This document shows positions 13,681 through 59,098 of a stretch of 64,000 nt of DNA, piece after piece (the stretch's first letter is position 1; every line of letters begins with the position of its first letter). The stretch comes from Mactromeris polynyma (Eukaryota > Mollusca > Bivalvia > Venerida > Mactridae). A program made the translations under genes and the position numbers. The DNA lies in the NCBI GenBank assembly GCA_032209605.1, contig JASFXZ010000029.1, positions 106,001 through 170,000 of the forward strand. The letters are read 5' to 3'. The notes under the pieces were generated by a model. The model was not told the origin of the DNA, searched no databases, and saw only the letters and a program-made list of their open reading frames with translations.

Positions 13681-13689
13681 TTATTTATT

Positions 13690-28878: not shown

Positions 28879-31177
28879 TTACATTTCTTGTATTTTGTAA
28901 TGTCCATAAGCATAACTGGCAACACCATCATCAAGTAGATACCGTTTATCATCAAAACATGATAACCCCACTTTTTTATTTTCTCAAGATAAATTTCATG
29001 GTTATGACTACGAAATGAATTCATTTGTGATGTCAGTTGCGAATCATTAAACAAAACATGTCTATAATCTTGTAATTTCAATTCTTTTTTAACAACTACT
29101 TTTGAAATCCCCTTTGCACGTTTATCTTCTTTGTTATCGCAAAGGAATGCATACATTTTAGATTTCAATCCACAATATTCGGAGATACATTTCTCATTTG
29201 TTTCACTCTTCATTTTCCCTATCACTTTTTTGTTGGTGTTATTATATAGAAAATGTTCTTTGGGGAAATCAGAAGTGTCAAACAAATCAGAATAGCAATA
29301 CATATCTTGAAAAAGATCATCAGTATCACAACTAATAAAAACGAATCTGTATCAGTCATTTACAATTGCAAATTGTTTCCATAAAGTTTATTCAAGTGAT
29401 TATAATAAAAATCATACATAACTGTCTTAGATAGATCAAAGACAGTCATACAGATATAAATTGTTTTGTTCATTTTCACCTTTACACGATTGAGTTCAAC
29501 ACCGACGAGATCCTCAGAGAATAGTCGATGTAATTTATATGTGGACTTGGCTGACACTTTCTTTAAGCGTGTCTCAGTATGCACCAACTCCACAGATCGA
29601 TGTTTCCTTTCATTCTCCATGCCTTTTTCTGAAAGAGAGAGAGAAACAAAACAGATAAGTAAATTTCTTAATATATTATTTTGATTACATATTATTAACT
29701 GTCTTTGCGCTGTCATGGTCTTACTATGCGAAATTTCAATACTATATTTTTGTCATTTAAGTCGTGTAGATTAGTCTCCCTTGAACTTGTACCTACAGTG
29801 CTTTAATTTTTGCTATTTATAGTAATTCAGGTTTTGCCTCCCTTGTATGAGTCATACAGCATAGTAAAAAATATAAGCTTTTCCGAATTTTATATATATA
29901 TCATCCTGAACTATGCAAACTTTCATTTATCTTCTTTCTAAAGGAGGAAGTAACTATTAAACTATGACATTTATTTAACCCCAACTGTAAATTGTGTTTT
30001 CTTTCCACTACTCTTTTCGCTAATTCCATTTTGGATTTGACATCATTAAAACAAGAAAGAGTGTTTAATTCACGTTTAAAATAGTTGTGTCTTTTTGGTG
30101 TAAACTAAACATTTTCGATAATAGTCATTGCTTGGCATTGGTTTGGATTTACTACCTTTTCGTTATTATTCATAGTGATGTGCTATTTCCTTTGAAATTC
30201 ATTTTATTTGTGACCAAAGTAAAATGTAATATAATTTCGCGATATGAAACACATTTATAAATTCTTTCTCATTAATGATTTCCATCTTTAGTTTGAATAA
30301 GTTATTCTAAACTATTCAATAAGTACATATATAAGATACTTACCAAATACAGAATTGTTCATCAGCTTGTAGAAGTTTTTCTCAAATGTGGATTTAGCTT
30401 GCTGTCGCATTTGAGTGTTGAATTCAACGTAAGGTTTCATAAAGTCTTCTTGACGAAATTCTAAGATTCTATGAATTTTCTTCAATTTCAGCCCCATTTG
30501 AAGATATAGCTGCAGGTTCTGATAATGGAGTACGTAGTGGTCTTTATCTTCAAGAGTGGTAAGCATTTTTTCGACTTTCGCTCTGGGTGGGAGTTTGTCC
30601 GTGTTATGCAACTTTTTCTAGACTCATTTTGCATATGGCGATAACTTTTCAGCGGATATAAAATTACGTTCAGGTAAGGGGAATGGGAAGCAGTTATGAT
30701 TATCATGTAAATTGTTACTTCCAGAATATATCCTATGGGTCCATTCTTTGATATATTTTGAACATTAAAAATATTTATTTCTTCAGCATTTAAGAATCTA
30801 AAGAACCCTACAGGTAGTTTTTCTGACATACTAAAACCATATAAGTTGTTGACATCATAATATGCTAAATATGATTTTGATTTTGTATTATCATAATCTT
30901 CTAAATATGGATTGTTTGCCTTTTTATATCTGTTTGAAATCTGACTTATACCACCCCGAATCCCCTTTTCAATAAACAAAATCTGATCAGTATCTGTTAT
31001 AAGTTCTAAACTGACATCAGTCATTTTTAACATTGCCTGTCAGCTTAAACCAGGGCTGGTATAAAAATGGCATGGGTCCAGGTCATAACATCTCTGAGAC
31101 ATGTCCCTAAATTCTTCAAAAACATCAGCTAATAGTAATACATCTGTTTTAAGATAAAGGTCATGATACTCTCCCAT
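28879..31177 (-). pseudogene. Protein-primed DNA polymerase B, Polinton/adintovirus type, decayed
   Basis: Minus-strand homology to the C-terminal half of Polinton-type family B polymerases. In order: YHDLYLKTDVLLLADVFE, palm motif A in YYDVNNLYGFSM, motif B in KLMNNSVFG, motif C in MTDTDSF, and a C-terminal tail ending at the stop 28879-28881. Exon 1 ends at 30344 with donor GTAAGT and exon 2 starts at 29638 after a CTCTCTCTCTTTCAG acceptor; the join keeps register across motif B. Breaks: TGA at a conserved Trp position near 31038, a frameshift near 30710 after the GYILEV segment, another near 30610, TAA just before motif C near 29360, shifts near 29327 and 28985. The N-terminal exonuclease part is missing. 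It would replicate Polinton DNA; this copy cannot. Confidence 0.85.
29639..30343 (-). other. Spliceosomal intron inside the polymerase pseudogene
   Basis: A 705-bp interval with a perfect GTAAGT donor, a long polypyrimidine tract and CAG acceptor separates palm motif B from the following conserved segment. The flanking protein homology is contiguous without it. It contains no recognisable insertion. Confidence 0.65.
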
Positions 31178-31189
31178 TTTCAAAAAAAA

Positions 31190-31311
31190 ATGTTTTCCTT
31201 CAGTTGTGGAACTAAGTTCTTGACTAGTTGTTGTTGTACATCATATGTGGTTACGTCTTCAGATGCGGGTACTTCAGATGCGCTTTCATCAGATGCGGGA
31301 ACATCGGACAT
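31190..31311 (-). CDS. Short upstream leader frame next to the polymerase
   Basis: An ATG at 31311 opens a frame of about 40 codons with an internal duplication (VPASDESASEVPASED) that stops just before the polymerase homology begins, one frame away. It may be a displaced N-terminal piece of the polymerase ORF or chance. Not recognised. Confidence 0.2.
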
Positions 31312-33896: not shown

Positions 33897-33902
33897 ACGT
33901 TG
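33897..33902. repeat. Target-site duplication, left (ACGTTG)
   Basis: A 6-bp direct repeat identical to 48741-48746, directly outside the AG... terminus of the palindromic element. Confidence 0.8.
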
Positions 33903-33944
33903 AGTAGAGGAGAATGGACAGGAGTCGGCGCCACAATTGTGGCA

Positions 33945-34046
33945 CCTTGCTCATTGTGGAACCTTGCTCATTGTGGAACCTTGCTCATTGTGGCACCTTG
34001 CTCATTGTGGAACCTTGCTCATTGTGGTGTCTTGCTCATTGCGGTA
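33945..34046 (+). repeat. 17-bp tandem repeat at the element's left tip
   Basis: About six units of CCTTGCTCATTGTGGAA, with A/C variation at the unit boundary, lie 42 bp inside the left end. The opposite end has five units in inverted orientation. Subterminal short repeats like these are frequent transposase or integrase binding zones, but their role here is inferred. Confidence 0.85.
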
Positions 34047-34315
34047 CCATACTAGTTCGCGGCAACTCTGATGATAGAACAATTGTTCGCATCCTCACAA
34101 AGCCTATACGCGTCAAATGCGGTTGATTCGGAACATAATACAGGGGAAGTAACTACCGCGAAACTAGTCGTTGTTGTCGCTACAGTTATACATCTTGACA
34201 TCGGGTTTTTGAGACAAGTCATTAAACAAGCTTCAAGGCTGCCTATATAGACCACTTTTGGGAGGGAATTTTCTTCTTTATCTATATAAAGCCACCATCT
34301 TGGATCGATAGTAAA

Positions 34316-34519
34316 ATGAGGGAATTTTCAGACCCATTCTTGCGTAATGAATATATTTATAAATATGACAGTGTTTTCATAAGTAATGTTCAAGCAGACG
34401 ACGCGTTTAGCGTCAAATTATATCGAATTAATAACCGTTGCATCTATCCTCATTCTATTTCACGATTGAGTGGTGATTTAAACTACCTACAACCACTGTT
34501 AAACCTTTCTGAATTATAA
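34316..34519 (+). CDS. 67-codon frame conserved in three arms
   Basis: The same 67-residue frame (starts MREFSDPFLRNEYIYKYD) occurs at 34316-34519 (+), 42478-42681 (-) and 48151-48354 (-), identical in all three. Identity is expected because the arms are nearly identical in DNA, so it does not prove selection. No domain recognised. Upstream is a TATATAAAG box at about 34282, which could drive it. Confidence 0.3.
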   Translation: MREFSDPFLRNEYIYKYDSVFISNVQADDAFSVKLYRINNRCIYPHSISRLSGDLNYLQPLLNLSEL

Positions 34520-36298
34520 TCACTCTTATAACTTAAGACATGTAGTGACTTGTTTATGACTTGATCTTTACATCGGGGTTTTTTATACAAGTCATCGTAC
34601 TGTTAAACAAGCTTCAGAACTTATATAAGTCTTTTCAACCACTCATTTTGTTGCATTAAAATCTTCATTCTTTAATGTATAACTGATTTCAGTGTCTAAC
34701 CGTGAATCTACATTTTATAATAGGTAGCAGTCACTTAGCAACATTTTTAATAGTACTTTACCATTACGTTTATCTCGAGTCATTCACCTGTTAGTAAAGA
34801 GGGTGTCTAAATTAAAAATGATAGTAGTACAACAGTTTCATTGATGGGATAATAATGGGATTCTTGATATGAATGGGATTCTTGATATATATAGAACTTG
34901 TCGCAAAAATGATAATGAAAATAGTTTCTATTACATACTGAATATAATCTTTCTTTCAGTTTTCTAAGTCCCTACTGACAAAATGTAAGTCCCTACTGAC
35001 AAAATGTAACACATAAAAAGAGGATTGTTTTTTGCAGATATAAAGCAAGTTTATTTACTGTTAATTTTTATAGTTAAGATTTTACAAAATAATAATTTAA
35101 ATAAACCCTTTTCCTTGTATTACAGAACAGATACTCACCATCCCATCTTTCTAGAACATTTACTCATATTTTGTATGGCTTAAATTGATATAAAACACAG
35201 GTTTTGCAATAACCAGTTATTACATGTCTCTAGACAAAATAGAAAACATTAAATGTTTAATCATAAGATAGATGGATACAAGTTAAGAGTTTGTGTTTTA
35301 CATGGAATAATTCTATTATAAACGGCCGATGGATTATTTATGCATTTGAAATTATTCTGTTACAAAATACAGAATATTAATTAATTTTGAAATTATCCTA
35401 TTTTTACAAAACACAGAAACATTCATAAAATGAATCAGAGTTACGTGTTTAGAGTGAAATATTTTCATAGATTTCAAATAACTACCTATAGCTATTCCAA
35501 AATAATCTCATGATTGGTGAGAGAATAAGTGCAACAATTGCTTCACGATTCAAAACCAATTGTGTATTTATCTCATATGGCCGTGCATTCTGTTGGTGAC
35601 TGAAAGCTAAACTCATTTTTAATTAAATAGCATTTAAGTAATTTTTGTAAATGTCATTCTTGATTCCCCCTCTTTTAAGATGTTCAAGTAGTAATTGTAA
35701 ACCACATGACTCTACACCTTTTAAGCTTGATTTTTGTAATTGCATTGTAATAGTTTAAGCAAGGGTGATATACAAAATGGTATTTAATAGGGAAACTTTA
35801 ACCACGCTTCTATTGATAAGACCAGTGACTTTATTATATGTTTGTTGATATATAAAGTAGGACCATTAAAATCGTCATTGACATCATGAAGAAGCTTTAG
35901 TTTGTTGAGTATAAAATTACATATATCTACAATCCTAAATAATCCAGGTGAAAAAATACATTTATTGATAAACTGTGATCAACAGAAATGATGATCATTA
36001 TGTAAACATATTTGAGTATTAGATTAACGTATTAACGTATTTGAATAGCATTTTCAATACAGTAAAACCTTTACCATGACAACAATTGACATCCATTTTA
36101 TTAACTTCGGTATACATTATAAAGCTAACTTCGGAAATGTGAACTACGGCTTTCCATACCATTTTTATCTAACGATAAGTCAAACGTTAAAAATATGTTA
36201 ACTAAATAATGTTATATGATAATGCGACACACTTGTGGTTTTGAGTCAGCGTTGCTTTAACAATACAACAATATAGTGATACGTCGCTACTGTGGTCA

Positions 36299-36802
36299 GG
36301 CATTCCGTTTTCTAAAAATGTTTTTATAGACTCTTTGAATAGTCATAGCAACATTGTGTACAATTTTGTAACACTTACAGCTCAATTTGTTTAAACGTAT
36401 TATAAAAACCTACGACTTATATGTATATATTCTTAACATTTACTTAACAAATTTGATATTTAAATTGTTGTATCATCGCTATCAGCGTTAGGAAAGGTTT
36501 GTCGTGAAAAACGCATCATAAGCGAAAATATAGAAATTAAGCGGAAAGCTGGCATTCCGTTTTCTAAAAATGTTTTTATAGACTTTTTGAATAGTCATAG
36601 CAACATTGTGTACAATTTTGTAACACTTACAGCTCAATTTGTTTAAACGTATTATAAAAACCTACGACTTATATGTATATATTCTTATAATTTACTTAAC
36701 AAATTTGATATTTAAATTGTTGTATCATCGGTATCAGCGTTAGGAAAGGTTTGTCGTGAAAAACGCATCATAAGCGAAAATATAGAAATTAAGCGGAAAG
36801 AA
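36299..36802 (+). repeat. 252-bp tandem duplication inside the arm
   Basis: Two copies (about 36299-36550 and 36551-36802), each from CATTCCGTTTTCTAAAAATG to AAATTAAGCGGAAAG. The same doubled block is present, inverted, in the right arms and again in the left arm of copy 2 (about 43424-43927), so the duplication predates the palindrome. Confidence 0.9.
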
Positions 36803-37433
36803 TGTAGATCTTTATGTCACTGTTGAAAATGATTCGATAAACATGTATAGGATTTTAAATTCTAAAAACCGTATAAAAAATTGTATAACAATGAATTGTT
36901 ATTTCATCTACATTGAAAAGAAGTTTTTGAACTGGATACCTAGTGTCAGTTTTAATTCAACATAATTTTCTCATAGTGAACATAAAAGTTTTTATATACT
37001 CTTAGTTAAATGGTAAACACCATCTATTGGAAAAACGATCGAGAAAGAGAAGTCCCAAAGCAACACCTTTGTTTATTAGATACATTTATTTTTTCTCTAA
37101 ATCATCTACAGATAATTACATTTCTTTAATATAAAAGCATGAGTTTTAATAAAATAGACACATTTTTTTTGTTCTATCCAGATGGAACAAATGAATGAAG
37201 TCAGTCAATTCGTTGATAGAAATGTCACAGATTATAAATCATTTTATACAAAAGACATGTAGCACACTTTAGCTTCGCCAATATCGTTTTACTATTAGCC
37301 CGACAAGTTCGACAGTCCTGTTATATCACTATCACTCAGTATCTTCCATTTGTTCCGTATCTTCCAACTGTAAAGTAACGTAATTGTCCAGCACTTTATC
37401 AAACAGAAATCTCCGTTTAAGAATGGCGTACTG

Positions 37434-37527
37434 TTTAATACATGTACAATAGTAGTGATGTTTTCGTCTTCTTGTGAGGTTTGCTTCGGCTTTCTGCTCG
37501 CATCACTACTATTGGACATGTATTAAA
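37434..37527. repeat. Hairpin centre of palindrome copy 1
   Basis: Stem arms 37434-37460 and 37501-37527 are reverse complements with one mismatch (27 bp), around a 40-base loop. This is the symmetry axis of the whole copy-1 palindrome. Right of the stem, 37528-38114 has no counterpart in the left arm, so one side lost about 585 bp. TTAAA occurs at both edges of the missing segment, as expected for a microhomology-mediated deletion. Confidence 0.85.
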
Positions 37528-38114
37528 CTGAACACTTACATGATTCCTCCTCATTTGCAGTTTAGCCTTCAAGCGCGATGTTTAAATGCGATATCTGTTT
37601 CAAAGGTTTTAAAAGACGGGATAATATGTTACGGCATAAAAGGTCTGCGCATCCGGATGAAGATTCAGAGGACGACGCGATGTCAGACATTTCTGTACAG
37701 GAGGACATTTTTGGATATGTTGATGAAAACAATTCTGATAACATCGACAACGATATTGTTGATGAAAACAATTCTGATAACAGCGACGACGATATGACTG
37801 TAACCTCTGAGAAGAGTTTAGATATTGATCCTTGGGAATACATTGTAGATGAAACGTTTGATATGTGTCAGTCGCAGTATGAAGCCGATGTGAATAAGCT
37901 TATGGAAGAAGATACCGAGATCAGTGAAACTGAAGCCAGAGAAAATGTCTTTGAGGACATGAAAAGCACTTACATGAAAGCCATGATGAACATTTTCGGT
38001 AGTAAACTGGTGTGGTTCGATGCTATGAAGAAAGGTCCTATCTATAAAGCGATAAAGAAGACAGTCAATCAACTCATTGCAACAGAACACTACGAAGGGG
38101 AGGAAGCCTTAAAG
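37528..38114 (+). other. Asymmetric segment present on one side of the centre only
   Basis: This segment holds the 5' part of the zinc-finger ORF and its leader. The left arm lacks it but keeps an inverted copy of the ORF's last ~30 codons (reads YAILKRRFLFDKVLDNYV), so the palindrome once carried two divergently read copies of the gene, one of which is now deleted. Confidence 0.75.
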
Positions 38115-38213
38115 TACGCCATTCTTAAACGGAGATTTATGTTTGATAAAGTGCTGGACAATTACGTTACTCCACAGTTGGACGATACGGAACAAATGGA
38201 AGATACTGAGTGA
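37578..38213 (+). CDS. C2H2 zinc-finger protein of the palindromic element (copy 1)
   Basis: A 211-codon intact ORF. Residues 1-26 form one classical C2H2 finger, FKCDICFKGFKRRDNMLRH followed by a second His. Residues 27-80 are acidic with a repeated DENNSDN stretch. The remainder is predicted mostly helical and charged (WEYIVDETFDMC, FEDMKSTYMKAMM, YKAIKKTVNQLI, LKRRFMFDKVLDN). I recall similar finger-plus-helical proteins among Polinton-like accessory ORFs in invertebrates, but I cannot verify this. ATG at 37578 is the first in frame before the finger; an upstream start is excluded by the short spacing to the hairpin. AATAAA follows at about 38456. It is the only long intact frame carried by the element. 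Confidence 0.7.
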   Translation: MFKCDICFKGFKRRDNMLRHKRSAHPDEDSEDDAMSDISVQEDIFGYVDENNSDNIDNDIVDENNSDNSDDDMTVTSEKSLDIDPWEYIVDETFDMCQSQYEADVNKLMEEDTEISETEARENVFEDMKSTYMKAMMNIFGSKLVWFDAMKKGPIYKAIKKTVNQLIATEHYEGEEALKYAILKRRFMFDKVLDNYVTPQLDDTEQMEDTE

Positions 38214-39130
38214 TAGTGATATAACAGGACTGTCGAACTTGTCGGGCTAATAGTAAAACGATATTGGCGAAGCTAAAGTGTGCTACATGTCTTTTGTATA
38301 AAATACTTTATGATCTGTGACATTTCTATCAACGAATTGACTGACTTCATTCATTTGTTCCATCTGGATAGAACAAAAAAAATGTGTCTATTTTATTAAA
38401 ACTCATGCTTTTATATTAAAGAAATGTAATTATCTGTAGATGATTTAGAGAAAAAATAAATGTATCTAATAAACAAAGGTGTTGCTTTGGGACTTCTCTT
38501 TCTCGATCGTTTTTCCAATAGATGGTGTTTACCATTTAACTAAGAGTATATAAAAACTTTTATGTTCACTATGAGAAAATTATGTTGAATTAAAACTGAC
38601 ACTAGGTATCCAGTTCAAAAACTTCTTTTCAATGTAGATGAAATAACAATTCATTGTTATACAATTTTTTATACGGTTTTTAGAATTTAAAATCCTATAC
38701 ATGTTTATCGAATCATTTTCAACAGTGACATAAAGATCTACATTCTTTCCGCTTAATTTCTATATTTTCGCTTATGATGCGTTTTTCACGACAAACCTTT
38801 CCTAACGCTGATACCGATGATACAACAATTTAAATATCAAATTTGTTAAGTAAATTATAAGAATATATACATATAAGTCGTAGGTTTTTATAATACGTTT
38901 AAACAAATTGAGCTGTAAGTGTTACAAAATTGTACACAATGTTGCTATGACTATTCAAAAAGTCTATAAAAAAATTTTTAGAAAACGGAATGCCAGCTTT
39001 CCGCTTAATTTCTATATTTTCGCTTATGATGCGTTTTTCACGACAAACCTTTCCTAACGCTGATAGCGATGATACAACAATTTAAATATCAAATTTGTTA
39101 AGTAAATGTTAAGAATATATACATATAAGT

Positions 39131-40588
39131 CTTCTTCTTCTTCTTAAGGATTACTACACTCCTTCAAATCACTGAAGATTATGTGTAGGCACTAGTTAAA
39201 AAAAAGAGAAACACTAAAAAGTGTATATACAAAGTAACAGCCATATTACATGTGCAAATTAAAATATTTTTTTTTTTTTGGATTTTTGAATAACAAATTT
39301 ATGTTTAAAACTTTGTACATTGGTTGTAGTCTAGTAGGCAATGCATGATACCAAGACAGGCACAGTGACAATGGTCTTAAAAGCATCAACTGTGTCTGCT
39401 TGGTGTGCAATTTGGGGCAATATGTTCCACTGACTTATTGTTCTTGGATAGAAAGAAAACTTGTATTGGTCATTTAAGGTACTAATATGTTTAAAGCCAT
39501 ATCCACTGCTATATCGAGTTCTTTGGTCAGTTGGAATAAGTAAGTTATTTTCAGGGTATATGGCAACAATATGATGGATTATTTTGTAAAACATGATAAG
39601 ACGAGCTCTAGTTCTTCTGATTTCTAGGGATGGCCAGTTAAGAGTATGTAACATGTTGGAGACTGAACTGGTGTTATGAAATCGATTTGTGGTGAATCTA
39701 GCGGCCCTTCTCTGAACTTTTTCGATTTGTACTTTTTGGCCTTTGGCATGTGGGTCCCAGACGGAGGAGGAGTATTCCAATTTTGGTCTTACAATAGCTT
39801 TATATGCATGTTCTTTGACTTTGGATGAATTTATTTTTAGGTTTCTGCGAAGGAAGCCAAGTGACTGGTTTGCTTTGTTTGTGATTGAGTTAATGTGTTT
39901 GTCCCATTTGAGGTTGTTTTGTAATGTTAATCCTAAATATTTGGCTGATTCGACTTTCTCTAAATTGTGATTGTGTAATGTATATTGGAAATTTATTGGG
40001 GTCTTTTTCTGTGTTACTGAAAGGATGTTACATTTATCTGGATGAAAGTGCATTAGCCAGTCCTGTTCCCACCTACCAGCAGCTTCTAAGTCAGACTGGA
40101 GGAGTTTAGCGTCATTTGTGTTTTTTATTTCTTTGTATATTATGCTATCATCAGCAAAAAGTCTGAGTGTACTGTGTTGGATGTAATCGGGAAGGTCATT
40201 TATGTAAATTAAAAATAGGATTGGACCCATGACTGTGCCCTGGGGTACACCGGAAGTCACAGGAACTTTTTCTGACATTACACCGTCCAGGGCAACAGTC
40301 TGAGTCCGGTCTTCCAGGAAGTCCGAAATCCAATCAATAGTGTTACTGTTGATACCATAATATTTGAGTTTATACAGGAGATGATTGTGTGACACTTTGT
40401 CAAATGCCTTGGCAAAATCCATTATGATTATGTCTGTTTGAATTTTTTTGTTAAATGATTGGCAAATATTTTGAATAAAGGAGATAAGCTGGGTTTCACA
40501 TGAACGTGAGGATCTAAAACCATGCTGCAAATCATACAGTATATTGTTCTTTTCGAGAAAGGACATCATGTTACTGGAGATTTTTAGG
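39131..40588 (-). mobile_element. 5'-truncated non-LTR retrotransposon (LINE)
   Basis: An insertion of about 1.46 kb that is absent from the same position of the other right arm (compare 46240-46270). Its 3' end on the minus strand is a short (AAG)n tail (complement of 39131-39144). A 2-bp loss of target sequence, not a duplication, is seen at the junctions (AAGTC before, AGGTTTTTATA after). Confidence 0.85.
39331..40569 (-). CDS. LINE reverse transcriptase (C-terminal two thirds)
   Basis: An intact 412-codon frame of a non-LTR reverse transcriptase, Jockey/CR1-like by overall motif pattern. It starts inside the RT domain: QHGFRSSRSCETQL, IIMDFAKAFDKVSH (catalytic Asp), GVPQGTVMGPILF, FADDSIIY (catalytic DD), then YLGLTLQNNLKW and the thumb region. 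A long C-terminal part follows (KVQRRAARFTTNRF). The endonuclease and ORF1 are missing through 5' truncation at 40588, so it cannot move on its own. Absence of stops implies recent insertion. Plus-strand frames at 39743-40109 are shadows. Confidence 0.9.
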   Translation of the reverse strand: MMSFLEKNNILYDLQHGFRSSRSCETQLISFIQNICQSFNKKIQTDIIIMDFAKAFDKVSHNHLLYKLKYYGINSNTIDWISDFLEDRTQTVALDGVMSEKVPVTSGVPQGTVMGPILFLIYINDLPDYIQHSTLRLFADDSIIYKEIKNTNDAKLLQSDLEAAGRWEQDWLMHFHPDKCNILSVTQKKTPINFQYTLHNHNLEKVESAKYLGLTLQNNLKWDKHINSITNKANQSLGFLRRNLKINSSKVKEHAYKAIVRPKLEYSSSVWDPHAKGQKVQIEKVQRRAARFTTNRFHNTSSVSNMLHTLNWPSLEIRRTRARLIMFYKIIHHIVAIYPENNLLIPTDQRTRYSSGYGFKHISTLNDQYKFSFYPRTISQWNILPQIAHQADTVDAFKTIVTVPVLVSCIAY

Positions 40589-42477
40589 TTTTTATAATAC
40601 GTTTAAACAAATTGAGCTGTAAGTGTTACAAAATTGTACACAATGTTGCTATGACTATTCAAAGAGTCTATAAAAACATTTTTAGAAAACGGAATGCCTG
40701 ACCACAGTAGCGACGTATCACTATATTGTTGTATTGTTAAAGCAACGCTGACTCAAAACCACAAGTGTGTCGCATTATCATATAACATTATTTAGTTAAC
40801 ATATTTTTAACGTTTGACTTATCGTTAGATAAAAATGGTATGGAAAGCCGTAGTTCACATTTCCGAAGTTAGCTTTATAATGTATACCGAAGTTAATAAA
40901 ATGGATGTCAATTGTTGTCATGGTAAAGGTTTTACTGTATTGAAAATGCTATTCAAATACGTTAATACGTTAATCTAATACTCAAATATGTTTACATAAT
41001 GATCATCATTTCTGTTGATCACAGTTTATCAATAAATGTATTTTTTCACCTGGATTATTTAGGATTGTAGATATATGTAATTTTATACTCAACAAACTAA
41101 AGCTTCTTCATGATGTCAATGACGATTTTAATGGTCCTACTTTATATATCAACAAACATATAATAAAGTCACTGGTCTTATCAATAGAAGCGTGGTTAAA
41201 GTTTCCCTATTAAATACCATTTTGTATATCACCCTTGCTTAAACTATTACAATGCAATTACAAAAATCAAGCTTAAAAGGTGTAGAGTCATGTGGTTTAC
41301 AATTACTACTTGAACATCTTAAAAGAGGGGGAATCAAGAATGACATTTACAAAAATTACTTAAATGCTATTTAATTAAAAATGAGTTTAGCTTTCAGTCA
41401 CCAACAGAATGCACGGCCATATGAGATAAATACACAATTGGTTTTGAATCGTGAAGCAATTGTTGCACTTATTCTCTCACCAATCATGAGATTATTTTGG
41501 AATAGCTATAGGTAGTTATTTGAAATCTATGAAAATATTTCACTCTAAACACGTAACTCTGATTCATTTTATGAATGTTTCTGTGTTTTGTAAAAATAGG
41601 ATAATTTCAAAATTAATTCATATTCTGTATTTTGTAACAGAATAATTTCAAATGCATAAATAATCCATCGGCCGTTTATAATAGAATTATTCCATGTAAA
41701 ACACAAACTCTTAACTTGTATCCATCTATCTTATGATTAAACATTTAATGTTTTCTATTTTGTCTAGAGACATGTAATAACTGGTTATTGCAAAACCTGT
41801 GTTTTATATCAATTTAAGCCATACAAAATATGAGTAAATGTTCTAGAAAGATGGGATGGTGAGTATCTGTTCTGTAATACAAGGAAAAGGGTTTATTTAA
41901 ATTATTATTTTGTAAAATCTTAACTATAAAAATTAACAGTAAATAAACTTGCTTTATATCTGCAAAAAACAATCCTCTTTTTATGTGTTACATTTTGTCA
42001 GTAGGGACTTACATTTTGTCAGTAGGGACTTAGAAAACTGAAAGAAAGATTATATTCAGTATGTAATAGAAACTATTTTCATTATCATTTTTGCGACAAG
42101 TTCTATATATATCAAGAATCCCATTCATATCAAGAATCCCATTATTATCCCATCAATGAAACTGTTGTACTACTATCATTTTTAATTTAGACACCCTCTT
42201 TACTAACAGGTGAATGACTCGAGATAAACGTAATGGTAAAGTACTATTAAAAATGTTGCTAAGTGACTGCTACCTATTATAAAATGTAGATTCACGGTTA
42301 GACACTGAAATCAGTTATACATTAAAGAATGAAGATTTTAATGCAACAAAATGAGTGGTTGAAAAGACTTATATAAGTTCTGAAGCTTGTTTAACAGTAC
42401 GATGACTTGTATAAAAAACCCCGATGTAAAGATCAAGTCATAAACAAGTCACTACATGTCTTAAGTTATAAGAGTGA

Positions 42478-42681
42478 TTATAATTCAGAAAGGTTTAACA
42501 GTGGTTGTAGGTAGTTTAAATCACCACTCAATCGTGAAATAGAATGAGGATAGATGCAACGGTTATTAATTCGATATAATTTGACGCTAAACGCGTCGTC
42601 TGCTTGAACATTACTTATGAAAACACTGTCATATTTATAAATATATTCATTACGCAAGAATGGGTCTGAAAATTCCCTCAT
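42478..42681 (-). CDS. 67-codon frame, right arm of copy 1
   Basis: Inverted copy of the frame at 34316-34519, same product; see there. It lies just inside the truncated end of this arm. Confidence 0.3.
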   Translation of the reverse strand: MREFSDPFLRNEYIYKYDSVFISNVQADDAFSVKLYRINNRCIYPHSISRLSGDLNYLQPLLNLSEL

Positions 42682-42739
42682 TTTACTATCGATCCAAGAT
42701 GGTGGCTTTATATAGATAAAGAAGAAAATTCCCTCCCAA

Positions 42740-42760
42740 AAGTGGTCCTAAATAGCATTT
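42740..42760. other. Internal junction of the dimeric element
   Basis: At 42747/42749 the right arm of copy 1 (…AAAGTGGTC) jumps directly to the point in the left arm that corresponds to 35624 (TAAATAGCATTT), with one extra C. The outer tip of one arm and the outer 1.7 kb of the next are therefore missing together, as expected from a single deletion between two head-to-tail copies. Confidence 0.85.
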
Positions 42761-44585
42761 AAGTAATTTTTGTAAATGTCATTCTTGATTCCCCCTCTTT
42801 TAAGATGTTCAAGTAGTAATTGTAAACCACATGACTCTACACCTTTTAAGCTTGATTTTTGTAATTGCATTGTAATAGTTTAAGCAAGGGTGATATACAA
42901 AATGGTATTTAATAGGGAAACTTTAACCACGCTTCTATTGATAAGACCAGTGACTTTATTATATGTTTGTTGATATATAAAGTAGGACCATTAAAATCGT
43001 CATTGACATCATGAAGAAGCTTTAGTTTGTTGAGTATAAAATTACATATATCTACAATCCTAAATAATCCAGGTGAAAAAATACATTTATTGATAAACTG
43101 TGATCAACAGAAATGATGATCATTATGTAAACATATTTGAGTATTAGATTAACGTATTAACGTATTTGAATAGCATTTTCAATACAGTAAAACCTTTACC
43201 ATGACAACAATTGACATCCATTTTATTAACTTCGGTATACATTATAAAGCTAACTTCGGAAATGTGAACTACGGCTTTCCATACCATTTTTATCTAACGA
43301 TAAGTCAAACGTTAAAAATATGTTAACTAAATAATGTTATATGATAATGCGACACACTTGTGGTTTTGAGTCAGCGTTGCTTTAACAATACAACAATATA
43401 GTGATACGTCGCTACTGTGGTCAGGCATTCCGTTTTCTAAAAATGTTTTTATAGACTCTTTGAATAGTCATAGCAACATTGTGTACAATTTTGTAACACT
43501 TACAGCTCAATTTGTTTAAACGTATTATAAAAACCTACGACTTATATGTATATATTCTTAACATTTACTTAACAAATTTGATATTTAAATTGTTGTATCA
43601 TCGCTATCAGCGTTAGGAAAGGTTTGTCGTGAAAAACGCATCATAAGCGAAAATATAGAAATTAAGCGGAAAGCTGGCATTCCGTTTTCTAAAAATGTTT
43701 TTATAGACTTTTTGAATAGTCATAGCAACATTGTGTACAATTTTGTAACACTTACAGCTCAATTTGTTTAAACGTATTATAAAAACCTACGACTTATATG
43801 TATATATTCTTATAATTTACTTAACAAATTTGATATTTAAATTGTTGTATCATCGGTATCAGCGTTAGGAAAGGTTTGTCGTGAAAAACGCATCATAAGC
43901 GAAAATATAGAAATTAAGCGGAAAGAATGTAGATCTTTATGTCACTGTTGAAAATGATTCGATAAACATGTATAGGATTTTAAATTCTAAAAACCGTATA
44001 AAAAATTGTATAACAATGAATTGTTATTTCATCTACATTGAAAAGAAGTTTTTGAACTGGATACCTAGTGTCAGTTTTAATTCAACATAATTTTCTCATA
44101 GTGAACATAAAAGTTTTTATATACTCTTAGTTAAATGGTAAACACCATCTATTGGAAAAACGATCGAGAAAGAGAAGTCCCAAAGCAACACCTTTGTTTA
44201 TTAGATACATTTATTTTTTCTCTAAATCATCTACAGATAATTACATTTCTTTAATATAAAAGCATGAGTTTTAATAAAATAGACACATTTTTTTTGTTCT
44301 ATCCAGATGGAACAAATGAATGAAGTCAGTCAATTCGTTGATAGAAATGTCACAGATTATAAATCATTTTATACAAAAGACATGTAGCACACTTTAGCTT
44401 CGCCAATATCGTTTTACTATTAGCCCGACAAGTTCGACAGTCCTGTTATATCACTATCACTCAGTATCTTCCATTTGTTCCGTATCTTCCAACTGTAAAG
44501 TAACGTAATTGTCCAGCACTTTATCAAACAGAAATCTCCGTTTAAGAATGGCGTACTGTTTAATACATGTACAATAGTAGTGATG
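42749..44585 (+). repeat. Left inverted arm, copy 2 (outer part missing)
   Basis: Corresponds to 35624-37460 at a constant offset of 7125 bp. It includes the 252-bp doubled block and the inverted duplicate of the zinc-finger ORF end (44420-44559). Confidence 0.9.
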
Positions 44586-44652
44586 TTTTCGTCTTCTTGT
44601 GAGGTTTGCTTCGGCTTTCTGCTCGCATCACTACTATTGGACATGTATTAAA
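44559..44652. repeat. Hairpin centre of palindrome copy 2
   Basis: Same 27-bp stem and 40-base loop as at 37434-37527, offset by 7125 bp. Confidence 0.85.
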
Positions 44653-44702
44653 CTGAACACTTACATGATTCCTCCTCATTTGCAGTTTAGCCTTCAAGCG
44701 CG

Positions 44703-45338
44703 ATGTTTAAATGCGATATCTGTTTCAAAGGTTTTAAAAGACGGGATAATATGTTACGGCATAAAAGGTCTGCGCATCCGGATGAAGATTCAGAGGACGA
44801 CGCGATGTCAGACATTTCTGTACAGGAGGACATTTTTGGATATGTTGATGAAAACAATTCTGATAACATCGACAACGATATTGTTGATGAAAACAATTCT
44901 GATAACAGCGACGACGATATGACTGTAACCTCTGAGAAGAGTTTAGATATTGATCCTTGGGAATACATTGTAGATGAAACGTTTGATATGTGTCAGTCGC
45001 AGTATGAAGCCGATGTGAATAAGCTTATGGAAGAAGATACCGAGATCAGTGAAACTGAAGCCAGAGAAAATGTCTTTGAGGACATGAAAAGCACTTACAT
45101 GAAAGCCATGATGAACATTTTCGGTAGTAAACTGGTGTGGTTCGATGCTATGAAGAAAGGTCCTATCTATAAAGCGATAAGGAAGACAGTCAATCAACTC
45201 ATTGCAACAGAACACTACGAAGGGGAGGAAGCCTTAAAGTACGCCATTCTTAAACGGAGATTTATGTTTGATAAAGTGCTGGACAATTACGTTACTCCAC
45301 AGTTGGACGATACGGAACAAATGGAAGATACTGAGTGA
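44703..45338 (+). CDS. C2H2 zinc-finger protein of the palindromic element (copy 2)
   Basis: Second intact copy of the 211-codon ORF. It differs from copy 1 at one residue (Arg for Lys in the YKAIKKTVNQ segment). Domain layout as in copy 1: one C2H2 finger at the N-terminus, acidic linker with the DENNSDN repeat, and a charged helical C-terminal half. Two open copies within 7 kb in an element that otherwise carries no gene argue that the frame matters or that the duplication is very recent. Confidence 0.7.
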   Translation: MFKCDICFKGFKRRDNMLRHKRSAHPDEDSEDDAMSDISVQEDIFGYVDENNSDNIDNDIVDENNSDNSDDDMTVTSEKSLDIDPWEYIVDETFDMCQSQYEADVNKLMEEDTEISETEARENVFEDMKSTYMKAMMNIFGSKLVWFDAMKKGPIYKAIRKTVNQLIATEHYEGEEALKYAILKRRFMFDKVLDNYVTPQLDDTEQMEDTE

Positions 45339-48150
45339 TAGTGATATAACAGGACTGTCGAACTTGTCGGGCTAATAGTAAAACGATATTGGCGAAGCTA
45401 AAGTGTGCTACATGTCTTTTGTATAAAATACTTTATGATCTGTGACATTTCTATCAACGAATTGACTGACTTCATTCATTTGTTCCATCTGGATAGAACA
45501 ACAAAAATGTGTCTATTTTATTAAAACTCATGCTTTTATATTAAAGAAATGTAATTATCTGTAGATGATTTAGAGAAAAAATAAATGTATCTAATAAACA
45601 AAGGTGTTGCTTTGGGACTTCTCATTCTCGATCGTTTTTCCAATAGATGGTGTTTACCATTTAACTAAGAGTATATAAAAACTTTTATGTTCACTATGAG
45701 AAAATTATGTTGAATTAAAACTGACACTAGGTATCCAGTTCAAAAACTTCTTTTCAATGTAGATGAAATAACAATTCATTGTTATACAATTTTTTATACG
45801 GTTTTTAGAATTTAAAATCCTATACATGTTTATCGAATCATTTTCAACAGTGACATAAAGATCTACATTCTTTCCGCTTAATTTCTATATTTTCGCTTAT
45901 GATGCGTTTTTCACGACAAACCTTTCCTAACGCTGATAGCGATGATACAACAATTTAAATATCAAATTTGTTAAGTAAATTATAAGAATATATACATATA
46001 AGTCGTAGGTTTTTATAATACGTTTAAACAAATTGAGCTGTAAGTGTTACAAAATTGTACACAATGTTGCTATGACTATTCAAAAAGTCTATAAAAAATT
46101 TTTTAGAAAACGGAATGCCAGCTTTCCGCTTAATTTCTATATTTTCGCTTATGATGCGTTTTTCACGACAAACCTTTCCTAACGCTGATAGCGATGATAC
46201 AACAATTTAAATATCAAATTTGTTAAGTAAATGTTAAGAATATATACATATAAGTCGTAGGTTTTTATAATACGTTTAAACAAATTGAGCTGTAAGTGTT
46301 ACAAAATTGTACACAATGTTGCTATGACTATTCAAAGAGTCTATAAAAACATTTTTAGAAAACGGAATGCCTGACCACAGTAGCGACGTATCACTATATT
46401 GTTGTATTGTTAAAGCAACGCTGACTCAAAACCACAAGTGTGTCGCATTATCATATAACATTATTTAGTTAACATATTTTTAACGTTTGACTTATCGTTA
46501 GATAAAAATGGTATGGAAAGCCGTAGTTCACATTTCCGAAGTTAGCTTTATAATGTATACCGAAGTTAATAAAATGGATGTCAATTGTTGTCATGGTAAA
46601 GGTTTTACTGTATTGAAAATGCTATTCAAATACGTTAATACGTTAATCTAATACTCAAATATGTTTACATAATGATCATCATTTCTGTTGATCACAGTTT
46701 ATCAATAAATGTATTTTTTCACCTGGATTATTTAGGATTGTAGATATATGTAATTTTATACTCAACAAACTAAAGCTTCTTCATGATGTCAATGACGATT
46801 TTAATGGTCCTACTTTATATATCAACAAACATATAATAAAGTCACTGGTCTTATCAATAGAAGCGTGGTTAAAGTTTCCCTATTAAATACCATTTTGTAT
46901 ATCACCCTTGCTTAAACTATTACAATGCAATTACAAAAATCAAGCTTAAAAGGTGTAGAGTCATGTGGTTTACAATTACTACTTGAACATCTTAAAAGAG
47001 GGGGAATCAAGAATGACATTTACAAAAATTACTTAAATGCTATTTAATTAAAAATGAGTTTAGCTTTCAGTCACCAACAGAATGCACGGCCATATGAGAT
47101 AAATACACAATTGGTTTTGAATCGTGAAGCAATTGTTGCACTTATTCTCTCACCAATCATGAGATTATTTTGGAATAGCTATAGGTAGTTATTTGAAATC
47201 TATGAAAATATTTCACTCTAAACACGTAACTCTGATTCATTTTATGAATGTTTCTGTGTTTTGTAAAAATAGGATAATTTCAAAATTAATTCATATTCTG
47301 TATTTTGTAACAGAATAATTTCAAATGCATAAATAATCCATCGGCCGTTTATAATAGAATTATTCCATGTAAAACACAAACTCTTAACTTGTATCCATCT
47401 ATCTTATGATTAAACATTTAATGTTTTCTATTTTGTCTAGAGACATGTAATAACTGGTTATTGCAAAACCTGTGTTTTATATCAATTTAAGCCATACAAA
47501 ATATGAGTAAATGTTCTAGAAAGATGGGATGGTGAGTATCTGTTCTGTAATACAAGGAAAAGGGTTTATTTAAATTATTATTTTGTAAAATCTTAACTAT
47601 AAAAATTAACAGTAAATAAACTTGCTTTATATCTGCAAAAAACAATCCTCTTTTTATGTGTTACATTTTGTCAGTAGGGACTTACATTTTGTCAGTAGGG
47701 ACTTAGAAAACTGAAAGAAAGATTATATTCAGTATGTAATAGAAACTATTTTCATTATCATTTTTGCGACAAGTTCTATATATATCAAGAATCCCATTCA
47801 TATCAAGAATCCCATTATTATCCCATCAATGAAACTGTTGTACTACTATCATTTTTAATTTAGACACCCTCTTTACTAACAGGTGAATGACTCGAGATAA
47901 ACGTAATGGTAAAGTACTATTAAAAATGTTGCTAAGTGACTGCTACCTATTATAAAATGTAGATTCACGGTTAGACACTGAAATCAGTTATACATTAAAG
48001 AATGAAGATTTTAATGCAACAAAATGAGTGGTTGAAAAGACTTATATAAGTTCTGAAGCTTGTTTAACAGTACGATGACTTGTATAAAAAACCCCGATGT
48101 AAAGATCAAGTCATAAACAAGTCACTACATGTCTTAAGTTATAAGAGTGA

Positions 48151-48354
48151 TTATAATTCAGAAAGGTTTAACAGTGGTTGTAGGTAGTTTAAATCACCAC
48201 TCAATCGTGAAATAGAATGAGGATAGATGCAACGGTTATTAATTCGATATAATTTGACGCTAAACGCGTCGTCTGCTTGAACATTACTTATGAAAACACT
48301 GTCATATTTATAAATATATTCATTACGCAAGAATGGGTCTGAAAATTCCCTCAT
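48151..48354 (-). CDS. 67-codon frame, right arm of copy 2
   Basis: Third copy of the frame at 34316-34519, inverted, in the arm that reaches the right end of the element. Confidence 0.3.
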   Translation of the reverse strand: MREFSDPFLRNEYIYKYDSVFISNVQADDAFSVKLYRINNRCIYPHSISRLSGDLNYLQPLLNLSEL

Positions 48355-48627
48355 TTTACTATCGATCCAAGATGGTGGCTTTATATAGATAAAGAAGAAA
48401 ATTCCCTCCCAAAAGTGGTCTATATAGGCAGCCTTGAAGCTTGTTTAATGACTTGTCTCAAAAACCCGATGTCAAGATGTATAACTGTAGCGACAACAAC
48501 GACTAGTTTCGCGGTAGTTACTTCCCCTGTATTATGTTCCGAATCAACCGCATTTGACGCGTATAGGCTTTGTGAGGATGCGAACAATTGTTCTATCATC
48601 AAAGTTGCTGCGAACTAGTATGGTACC

Positions 48628-48714
48628 GCAATGAGAAAGACACCACAATGAGCAAGGTTCCACAATGAGCAAGGTGCCACAATGAGCAAGGTTCCACAAT
48701 GAGCAATTGTGGCG
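48628..48714 (-). repeat. 17-bp tandem repeat at the element's right tip
   Basis: About five inverted units of the 17-bp repeat seen at 33945-34046 (CCACAATGAGCAAGGTT), next to the right end. Confidence 0.8.
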
Positions 48715-48740
48715 CTGACTCCTGTCCATTCATCTCTACT

Positions 48741-48746
48741 ACGTTG
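48741..48746. repeat. Target-site duplication, right (ACGTTG)
   Basis: A 6-bp direct repeat identical to 33897-33902, directly outside the ...CT terminus of the palindromic element. Confidence 0.8.
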
Positions 48747-56618: not shown

Positions 56619-59098
56619 CTTCTAAAAAAATCATGATCTTCCGCTCCCCATCCGAAATATAGGTTAGAAAGTCCGTTTATCCGCTGAAAATGTTCTTTCT
56701 TCAAAGCACAAACGCCTCCAAATTGGTTTGTGCGCAATCTGAAAATATGTTAGTTTAGCCCTTTTGTATCATAACAAGCAGAGTTTGTAATATGGCAAAG
56801 TTTCTGAATAATGCGTACAGGTATTTATATAACGGAATGGAAGAATCCATTTGGCATTTCATACCCTCCAAGTACTCCCTTTGGTTAAAATTGCATTATT
56901 TTAGTCCATGGATCCGTTTCTGGAAAGCATCACGGTAGTTTGACTTTTGTATACTGCGGAAGAACTAAAGAACAGCAGAATCCAGAACTTGTCGCGATCG
57001 ATATCTACGATCAGAAAGGAAAATTTCCAATTTTGGAAAGAGACAGAAGTCGCATGGTGCCAGGTCTGGGGAAATAGGAGTATGTGTAGCACAGTAAATT
57101 TCTCCGACTTAAAACATTGTGCTATTACTATACTGGAGGTGTGCGTTGGAGCAATATGTTATAGTCAAACGTGTTTGTAACCTGTGACTCGGCGACGTTT
57201 CTCGTAGTATTCAAAAAAAAATCTCGATAGTACCTTCCAATCACACTTCTTTACTATGCCTTGCTAGAGAAGAACAAATATGACGACATTTACAAAAAAC
57301 TTTTGTCATATTTTGGAAAACTTATTGGCAGTTTCACCGAGTACCTTTTTCTGGTTGTTAGATGGGGCTCCCACCTGGCAGAAATCTTCCTAAATATCGA
57401 TATTTTCTTTAAAATGACATAAACCGTTGATAGTGAAATACCAACAACGCGTGCAATATCACACACTGTATATCTAGCATCATTTTGAAGAATTTCTGTT
57501 ATCTTCAATACATTTTCATACATAGATTGCTGTCTTCGGCCGACCTAATTTAGCTGCATTTTCAGCAGACTGTATCCCACAATCAAATTTCTTTTTCCAT
57601 CTACGGACCGCCTCATAAGATACATTATCTGTCTCATAATCACGAGTAATTTCGGCAAATATCTCTTTTTACAGAAAAACCAAGCTTACTGGGAACGTTT
57701 ATGCAATACCGAATTTCTTCCGTATATGGTTATTCATTTTTTAACAATTTTTGCAACAGTGGTCAACGACTGACGACATTTTAATGACAAAGACTCTACA
57801 AACTGGTTATTCATTTGATACATGTATCTGTCATTGTGTAGATATAACATAGAGATATTCAGTTGTATAAACATCGACGACGTACAATGTCTCGTGGAAA
57901 TTGCTTGATATCACAATACACAATACATTTCGAACATCCCTCGTATTGTATCGTTGTGTTTACTTCAAAACTATTTAATTTTCAACCACATTTGTTTAAC
58001 TACAATGTAAAAATATTCCCAATTGTGATATTTGCAATTGAATGGCTATTTATAAATGCCAAATAATAGCATATATATATATACTTTTATCTCGGCCAAG
58101 TCGCTTGCACAAAACGTCATAAATTGACTGTAACCCGTAGAAATCTAGTTACATACTTATTTTTGGATTCGACGATAACCGCAGACATGTGTAATGGGCT
58201 TCGCTCACAAGTGTATGGGTTGCTGGTATTTTCTGGTAACAAATCAACATCGTGAAAGATAAAACATCGCTGATCTGTAACTTTGACAGTTTCCACAAAT
58301 CCGACGTTAAAAAGTAATGCTCTGTTGAACGGTACTCCGGGTGTCTGAAAACATCGAGTAGCTTTCCTTATTTGTTGGACAATATTCACACTGTCTTACT
58401 AAAGTATTGTACCTAAACACAGCTTTCACTGGATAAAACTTTAATGGCTATTACTACCATGAGCAAATGATAACTTAGCTCAAGAAAGTTTGTTATCATG
58501 GACGAATAAGACCTAGAATAGGAACAAGGCAGAAAATGAAGTCGATGGTTGCAGTTCGAGCATCGCTTTATGTGATGTTTGGTTTGAGCCTTGATTGAGG
58601 CGTGATGTTCTCATTGACAATTTGATTAAAGATAATAAGTAAACAAATAAATCAATAATTTTTGGACCTCCTCCACTAGAGCATGCAGGAAGTTGTCAGT
58701 TGTTCGTGAAAGAACATGTTAGTACCGGTTGGTAACCCGGGTAAAATAGTCAAGTCATTGGACCGTCGTATATACTGAAATATGTACAGTAGACAAACGA
58801 TATAAAACGAATTCCTGCCTGGTTAAATGTATACAATTACAATACAAAGACACACATCAACCTACCATTTCAACAACAACAATTATATATGCGAGTTGTT
58901 TACGCTGTAAGTATGGATGCATATAACGCATAAATATCTTCAGTTGTTCTTCTCTGTCTCTGAAGGGAATGACTATTACGATATCTTTCTGTACAACATA
59001 ATGTTCCGGTTTATAACGCCCTCCGGGATCCAAAGAACACGCGATTTTATCCTCGAGCACATCCCATGTGGCATTATCATCAAAATGCCAAGCACCTA
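56619..59098 (-). CDS. Beta-1,4-galactosyltransferase-family gene, three exons
   Basis: Three minus-strand exons join in phase at GT..AG sites. A, 58866-59098: GGRYKPEHYVV, VIPFRDREEQLKIFMRYMHP, YIIVVVEM. B, 58157-58344: VPFNRALLFNVGFVE and FIFHDVDLLPE with the DVD metal-binding motif, then PLHMSAVIVE. C, 56619-56738: FGGVCALKKEHFQRINGLSN and YFGWGAEDHDFFRR. This is the order of the beta4GalT domain: type II Golgi enzymes transferring a hexose from a UDP-sugar to terminal GlcNAc on glycans. The usual GWGGEDDD motif reads GWGAEDHD here, so substrate or metal use may differ. N-terminal cytosolic/membrane/stem exons (upstream, >59.1 kb) and the last exon(s) (<56.6 kb) were not found. The long intron 56739-58156 holds a mariner remnant. 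Confidence 0.85.
57290..57745 (-). pseudogene. Mariner transposase, N-terminal fragment
   Basis: The minus strand encodes SAENAAKLGRPKT and, one shift later, VLKITEILQNDARYTVCDIA then RVVGISLSTVYVILKK and ISARWEPHL, the paired helix-turn-helix region of mariner-type transposases. Upstream, from about 57740, more homology is readable across stops (for example YEAVRRWKKKFDCG). The DDE catalytic part is missing. It sits in the intron between exons B and C of the galactosyltransferase gene, in the same orientation. Confidence 0.8.
58685..58825 (+). repeat. SINE-like repeat, copy 2
   Basis: A diverged relative of 53350-53480 (shared AGTTGTCAGTTG, GTTAGTACCGGTTGG and the ATATA...AAACGATATAAAACG tail). 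It lies in the intron between exons A and B of the galactosyltransferase gene. Confidence 0.45.

What the first reader, a model, noticed from the sequence alone, without database searches (positions are those of the whole stretch)
33897..48746. Polinton-like ends on a giant palindromic element with no Polinton genes
ACGTTG is duplicated directly outside both ends, and the ends read AG...CT with inverted repeats of about 3.5 kb. Polintons/Mavericks make 6-bp target duplications and have AG-starting terminal inverted repeats. This element carries neither polymerase nor integrase, only a zinc-finger ORF inside a fold-back structure. I know of no described family with this architecture, so it may be a new class of non-autonomous Polinton derivative.
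Basis: partly seen in the sequence, partly recalled or inferred. Interest (0 to 1): 0.92.

Follow-up and report, generated by a model that had tools for sequence, protein, structure and literature searches.

The report
Mirror-image Polinton leftovers that spread

Summary
In the host assembly 18 of 19 other tip pairs, both tips found, have perfect 6-bp duplications. In relatives the tip is followed by truncated integrase genes, and at C245 by an open 382-codon integrase with rve and Chromo domains. Homologous integrases lie near PolB at 14 loci and beside an A32-like ATPase. The Polinton reading is supported. Palindromy is a family trait, though not of every copy: 19 of 19 integrase clusters with both strands face inward, and 5 of 7 wholly held copies have long arms.
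Corrections: the window copy is a 7.7-kb palindrome with a 5.67-kb internal tandem duplication and a 1.45-kb LINE, and holds two zinc-finger ORFs. From this copy alone, 6 and 8 bp of duplication cannot be told apart; relatives decide. No PolB was found near a tip-sharing copy. Movement in trans and the origin of the palindrome are inferred.

The parts
33897..33902 (.). left target-site duplication ACGTTG
   Evidence: 6-bp length fixed by relatives
33903..37432 (+). left arm of the palindrome, tip AGTAGAGG at 33903
33936..34041 (+). subterminal array of 17-bp repeats (6.2 copies), mirrored at 48622-48706 (5.0 copies)
33903..34250 (+). 348-bp tip shared by the family
   Evidence: 65 matches in the host assembly (40 of 161 candidates scored); 53 exact matches of a 22-base tip pattern, 0 for the reversed-pattern control
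37433..38112 (.). unique centre, copy A
37578..38213 (+). C2H2 zinc-finger ORF, 211 aa, copy A
   Evidence: zf-C2H2 7.1e-5, below the curated cut-off
38113..39131 (-). right arm of copy A, inner part
   Evidence: I4
39132..40584 (-). 5'-truncated non-LTR retrotransposon inserted in the right arm (RVT_1)
   Evidence: absent from copy B
40585..42747 (-). right arm of copy A, outer part; lacks the last 347 bp of the tip
   Evidence: (I2)
42748..42749 (.). junction of the internal tandem duplication, one filler base
42749..44557 (+). duplicated left arm from arm position 1722 on, identical to copy A
44558..45237 (.). centre, copy B, 1 of 680 bases different
44703..45338 (+). C2H2 zinc-finger ORF, copy B
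45238..48740 (-). right arm with intact tip ending CTCTACT
48741..48746 (.). right target-site duplication ACGTTG

Best explanation
The element is a non-autonomous derivative of a Polinton. Both of its ends are copies of one end of the parent, the integrase end, so that it is a palindrome: tip, 17-bp repeats, (in many relatives) a truncated integrase gene, about 3 kb of shared sequence, a single-C2H2 zinc-finger gene, and the same in reverse. Shown: the shared tip, the 6-bp duplications, integrase pieces facing inward in both arms of relatives, an open full-length integrase behind the same tip at C245, and a pattern of arm similarity that fits exchange between arms. Inferred: it is inserted by the integrase of intact Polintons acting in trans on the tips; and the palindrome arose when a copy of the integrase end folded or switched back on itself during replication or repair, as happens with linear genomes that have inverted terminal repeats, either several times or once followed by different deletions. 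In the window copy the interior was later duplicated in tandem and a LINE landed in the first half.
For: Perfect 6-bp duplications outside AGTAG..CTACT at 11 of 11 pairs and at 7 of 9 further pairs tried; 18 of 19 with both tips found. Tip counts. Truncated integrase in both arms of L010, L011 and L013; 19 of 19 integrase clusters with both strands are + then -, and of the 14 of these whose ends were looked at 12 have perfect duplications. Truncation near residues 150, 195 and 230 of the frame. Same tip before an open 382-codon integrase with rve and Chromo. Integrase homologs of 28-41% within about 9 kb of PolB at 14 loci (by eye); 42% over 216 aa at C135. 57% over 369 aa to integrases of elements that also encode a Pox_A32-like ATPase, E 7.9e-4, below the curated cut-off. 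A homolog of the zinc-finger protein (36%, E 7e-43) lies about 1 kb behind an integrase piece at C90, and matches are placed alike at five other loci. Against the duplicate of the same insertion at C212:406-7476, 19 informative sites group the two arms of one locus and 0 group arms across loci.
Against: No PolB match lies near C245:2035-2052k or near the other integrases of 46% identity or more (by eye), so a complete Polinton with this tip was not seen; at least eight integrase matches of 28-41% have no PolB nearby either. The window copy holds no Polinton gene. One pair (C35:19334k) has no duplication, and for C245:21317k no right tip was found; five of the 19 facing clusters were not looked at. 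Of seven copies held from tip to tip (L009-L013, L016, L018) two, of 1,080 and 4,137 bp, showed no long arms. At C256:10128k the two arms keep different lengths of integrase (124 and 150 residues). The zinc-finger ORF shows no excess of silent changes among six copies (5.5 silent, 26.5 replacement; neutral ratio 4.54, observed 4.82). Nothing here shows transposition in trans or how the palindrome formed.
Confidence: 0.88

Rival explanations
1. It belongs to another integrase-type transposon group with 6-bp duplications, IS3EU or GingerRoot.
For: Same duplication length; IS3EU and GingerRoot make 6-bp duplications (PMC10045372, passages read).
Against: The same passages give TA..TA (for GingerRoot occasionally TG..CA) ends for them; here the duplications sit directly outside AG..CT (the pairs were sought by that pattern, so it is the exact place of the duplications that counts). 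The integrase has a C-terminal Chromo domain, described for adintoviruses (PMC11071296, passages), and homologs near PolB.
Confidence: 0.04
2. The true duplication is 8 bp (TACGTTGA) with GT..AC ends, as in hAT-like transposons.
For: The flanking match of the window copy is 8 bp and equally symmetrical.
Against: Of the 11 other pairs only one extends by a base on both sides; six extend on one side and four on neither.
Confidence: 0.01
3. The palindrome, or at least the doubled interior, is an assembly error.
For: The window insertion exists a second time at C212:1-8500 with flanks about 97% identical, and halves of that second copy, 100% identical to it, lie on C57 and C256, which is odd for a clean assembly. 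No reads are on hand.
Against: Facing integrase pieces recur at 19 places, 12 of the 14 looked at with their own duplications. The window's duplication joins non-homologous points with a filler base, and only one half has the LINE; an assembler joining haplotypes would join inside homology. A second doubled interior is assembled at C112:19571-19586k.
Confidence: 0.12
4. It is a self-sufficient fold-back transposon moved by its own zinc-finger protein, and the integrase pieces are mere passengers.
For: The zinc-finger frame is kept: 4 of 41 full-length copies have a stop against 8 of 27 integrase pieces of the 150-residue class (rows: Fisher p 0.05, rate test p 0.004; the copies are not independent).
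Against: The ends, duplication length and subterminal repeats are those of the integrase-bearing element. Pfam shows no catalytic domain in the protein. No signal of purifying selection.
Confidence: 0.04

Closest known systems
Polinton/Maverick elements and adintoviruses
   Same: 6-bp duplication (PMC10045372, passages), 5'-AG ends (recalled), in relatives an integrase with rve core and Chromo domain behind the tip (PMC11071296 passages), a zinc-finger gene (reported for some adintoviruses in the same passages).
   Different: The window copy has no PolB, integrase, protease, ATPase or capsid gene; its two arms, 3.5 kb each, are mirror copies, not just terminal repeats.
Non-autonomous Polintons listed in Repbase (recalled, not looked up)
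   Same: Deletion derivatives with Polinton ends.
   Different: The palindromic build with integrase pieces in both arms. I know of no described family with it; searches for 'non-autonomous Polinton/Maverick' gave 0 papers, and 'Polinton' with 'palindromic' 41 papers, ten listed, none on this by title. PMC10294476 (passages) names Mavericks in all mollusc genomes it analysed and nothing on palindromes.
Fold-back elements such as FB and Galileo (recalled)
   Same: Long inverted arms with internal tandem repeats.
   Different: Those belong to other transposase superfamilies, with other duplication lengths.
Palindromic defective adenovirus genomes (recalled; the eight titles listed are not on them)
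   Same: Protein-primed linear DNA whose one end has been copied onto both ends.
   Different: Those are free viral DNA in culture; these are integrated copies at many sites.

Membership tests
Polinton/Maverick | 6-bp target-site duplication | tested here: met
   window, and 18 of 19 other pairs with both tips found
Polinton/Maverick | terminal inverted repeats starting 5'-AG (criterion recalled) | tested here: met
   window; the relatives were sought by that pattern, and their duplications lie directly outside it
Polinton/Maverick | retroviral-type integrase | tested here: not met
   no such frame in the window copy; truncated in relatives; open 382 codons behind the same tip at C245
Polinton/Maverick | protein-primed PolB | tested here: not met
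   none in the window element and no match near tip-sharing copies; a decayed PolB lies outside it, at 30315-31240
Polinton/Maverick | packaging ATPase, protease, capsid genes | tested here: not met
   no long frame in the left arm but the zinc-finger ORF; an A32-like ATPase only in the 57% integrase lineage
non-autonomous derivative of a Polinton | shares its ends with an element encoding the integrase, and has moved | tested here: met
   shared tip before the open integrase at C245; many sites with duplications. Whether the C245 element is complete was not tested
IS3EU/GingerRoot | TA..TA or TG..CA ends | tested here: not met
   AG..CT; criterion from PMC10045372 passages
hAT-like | 8-bp duplication (recalled) | tested here: not met

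The most novel reading that the evidence does not exclude
The family is an endogenous counterpart of defective-interfering genomes: snap-back products of protein-primed replication of one Polinton lineage, made repeatedly with different truncation points, which then live as satellites of intact Polintons, keep both arms alike by exchange, and retain a zinc-finger gene, and perhaps the truncated integrase, because these act on the parent or on their own spread.
Probability: 0.3. Interest if true: 0.82.

Novelty: new variant of a known kind. Interest (0 to 1): 0.66.

Why it matters
Polintons are thought to be both transposons and viruses. Palindromic, gene-poor derivatives at about twenty sites would be fossils of how their DNA is copied, and a natural case of parasites of a parasite. 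They also suggest that kilobase palindromes can persist in an animal genome, with their arms kept alike by exchange and their centres deleted or doubled.

Tried and rejected
Led nowhere: viral-contig scans with the zinc-finger protein, the PolB piece, the tip, the 17-mer repeat and the integrase (no relative); phage records (none); PHROGs for window proteins (weak only); a single-sequence structure model of the zinc-finger protein (mean pLDDT 48, not used further).

Considered and rejected: an 8-bp duplication; a tandem of two separate insertions: the lengths fit one insertion with an internal duplication; selection on the truncated integrase: among nine gap-free copies 11.5 silent and 23.5 replacement changes, p 0.22, and 8 of 27 pieces of the 150-residue class carry stops.

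Limits of the counts: one search scored 40 of 161 candidates and 150 of 253, so these are lower bounds. One search used 71 integrase rows (identity 79% or more); five short rows of that identity (C101:1335131, C101:1398342, C179:5569271, C279:689811, C57:520767) were left out. For the zinc finger it used the first 50 of 115 rows; the window's own two copies (+ and +, 6.5 kb apart) lay beyond the 6-kb limit and were counted as two singles. One of the 19 facing clusters (C245:2035514/2051002) pairs the full integrase with a 79% fragment 16 kb away and may be fortuitous. The ends of five of the 19 (C245:2035k, C112:57005k, C234:10288k, C101:6109k, C255:1115k) were not compared. The tip pairs were chosen by the tip pattern. 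One search gave wrong values for L024 and L027 because in-frame stops were lost in the alignment; one search replaces it. One search stopped with an error after the arm comparisons and the left flank (8 differences in 375 aligned); the right flank was not compared there. Integrase-PolB neighbours and the rows for one search were counted by eye.

Full report
What is there. The element runs from 33903 to 48740 with ACGTTG directly outside both ends. Its terminal arms are inverted copies of 3,469 nt at 99.54% identity. It is compound. The direct repeats with spacing 7,125 and 5,673 and the arm alignment give: left arm 3,530 bp, centre 680 bp, right arm interrupted by a 1,453-bp LINE with a reverse-transcriptase frame (RVT_1 6e-27) and lacking its last 347 bp; then, after one filler base, the left arm again from its position 1722, the centre and a complete right arm. 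7,713 + 5,672 + 1,453 = 14,838 bp, the full length. So a 7.7-kb palindrome underwent one internal tandem duplication and took up the LINE in one half. The two halves differ by 1 base in the centre and 4 in the right arm, and by none in the left arm; left and right arms differ at 8 further sites in the same way in both halves, so they diverged before the duplication.

How long is the target duplication? In this copy the flanking match is 8 bp, TACGTTGA, and both 6 bp with AG..CT and 8 bp with GT..AC are symmetrical. The host assembly (793 Mb, 299 contigs) decides. The 348-bp tip has 65 matches there (40 of 161 candidates scored), and a 22-base tip pattern 53 exact matches against 0 for the reversed pattern. 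Of 11 independent facing pairs from that list, all 11 have perfect 6-bp duplications; the match extends on both sides in one, on one side in six, on neither in four. Of 9 further pairs tried, chosen from the facing integrase pieces, 7 are perfect, one (C35:19334k) matches 2 of 6, and for one (C245:21317k) no right tip was found. Together 18 of 19 pairs with both tips; a 6-bp match had a rate of about 5e-4 in random draws. The pairs were sought by the pattern AGTAG..CTACT, so the ends themselves are no independent result; the exact place of the duplications is. C212:406-7476 was left out of these counts, since it carries the flanks of the window insertion; its own match is 5 of 6.

The Polinton tie. 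Behind the tip many relatives carry the start of an integrase gene: 9 of the 20 stretches L009-L028 (three of the 20, L009, L014 and L015, belong to the window's own duplicated locus and have none). At C245:2051k the same tip is followed by an open frame of 382 codons with rve (1.2e-7) and Chromo (1.9e-7). A C-terminal chromodomain on an rve integrase is given as distinctive of adintoviruses in PMC11071296 (passages), and a 6-bp duplication as that of Polintons in PMC10045372 (passages). Within this genome, integrases 28-41% identical lie within about 9 kb of PolB at 14 loci, while at least eight other such matches have no PolB nearby (by eye); the one at C135 is 42% identical over 216 aa. Integrases 57% identical over 369 aa belong to elements with a Pox_A32-like ATPase (E 7.9e-4, below the curated cut-off) and a 439-aa protein without Pfam match that I take, from recall, for a capsid protein. 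No PolB match was found near the tip-sharing C245 copy or near the other integrases of 46% identity or more. The parent with PolB and this very tip is therefore inferred. PMC6431247 (passages) gives PolB and integrase as what Polintons encode; the window copy has neither.

The zinc-finger gene. The 211-aa protein has one C2H2 finger (zf-C2H2 7.1e-5) and 41 full-length copies. At C90 a 172-aa homolog (36%, E 7e-43) follows an integrase piece on the same strand; matches at C256 (two), C13, C135 and C289 are placed alike. It is thus plausibly a gene of the parent lineage, not a host gene picked up. PMC11071296 (passages) reports zinc-finger genes in some adintoviruses and in a clam adomavirus. 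Evidence for its being kept by selection is mixed: no excess of silent changes, but fewer stops than in the integrase pieces (4 of 41 against 8 of 27, Fisher p 0.05; copies not independent).

The palindrome as a family trait. Among 45 clusters of integrase matches, 19 hold both strands and all 19 are + then - (facing inward); 18 hold + only and 8 - only. Of the 14 of the 19 whose ends were compared, 12 have perfect duplications. Among 34 clusters of zinc-finger matches, 12 hold more than one copy, and all 12 begin with - and end with +; 22 are single, the window's two among them. Of seven copies held from tip to tip, five (L009-L013) have long inverted arms and two (L016, 1,080 bp; L018, 4,137 bp) do not. 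The integrase is cut near residue 150, 195 or 230 of the frame. In nine copies both arms are cut alike (C289, C13, C112:4866k, C256:15577k, C234:6697k, C113, C112:19571k, C242, C35:19334k); at C256:10128k they are not (124 and 150). The window copy lacks the integrase piece; in L010 the piece lies between two copies of a stretch of the tip around arm position 250-320, so it may have been lost by recombination between them (inferred). C112:19571-19586k has four zinc-finger copies, -+-+, another doubled interior.

Arms kept alike. The window insertion and C212:406-7476 share flanks and target site, so they most likely descend from one insertion. If their arms had evolved apart, left arms should resemble left arms. 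Instead 19 informative sites group the two arms of one locus and none groups arms across loci (9 + 10). Exchange between the arms predicts this. C57 and C256 each hold half of the second copy at 100% identity with C212:1-8500, so the assembly here is not clean.

Mechanism. Shown: insertion with 6-bp duplications; shared tips; arms alike within a locus; internal deletion, duplication and LINE insertion in single copies. Inferred, about 0.8: insertion in trans by a Polinton integrase. Inferred, about 0.5: origin by snap-back or template switch at the integrase end during replication of linear DNA with inverted ends, as recalled for defective adenovirus genomes; junctions that by eye show little homology fit but do not prove it. 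Unexplained: the window's duplication and the integrase-arm junction at C289 use the same spot of the arm, ATAGCATTTAAG.

Verdict. It is a palindromic variant of non-autonomous Polinton, not a new class of transposon. That I found nothing in print on this build rests on the listings in an open-access library only.

Noticed in passing
window 30315-31240, minus strand: Decayed DNA_pol_B_2 pieces in order (E 4.2e-6, 3.7e-5, 0.07), a polymerase remnant 3 kb left of the element; BLAST of the element against the window found no second copy of the tip.
   Followed up: partly
window 42748 and L056 (C289): Two different junctions use the same arm site ATAGCATTTAAG.
   Followed up: no
C212:1-8500, C57:10130300-, C256:9728900-: Second copy of the window insertion, with its two halves at 100% identity on two other contigs; misjoin, translocation or unresolved haplotype.
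   Followed up: partly
C231:1457928-1463062: Zinc-finger matches in the pattern ---+, with a 909-bp step: perhaps a local tandem amplification inside one copy.
   Followed up: no
L071 (C90:1669500-1675500): Integrase piece, a small gene and a zinc-finger gene in a row, with no capsid or ATPase frame seen between: perhaps a deletion derivative of another lineage.
   Followed up: partly
window 37433-37530: A small inverted repeat of about 28 bp per arm beside the zinc-finger ORF, followed by a splice-acceptor-like stretch (read by eye).
   Followed up: no
window 13310-13684, 19053-19556, 58860-59129: Transposase pieces with DDE_3 and DDE_Tnp_4 matches and a galactosyltransferase exon (Glyco_transf_7N 1.1e-17).
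   Followed up: no
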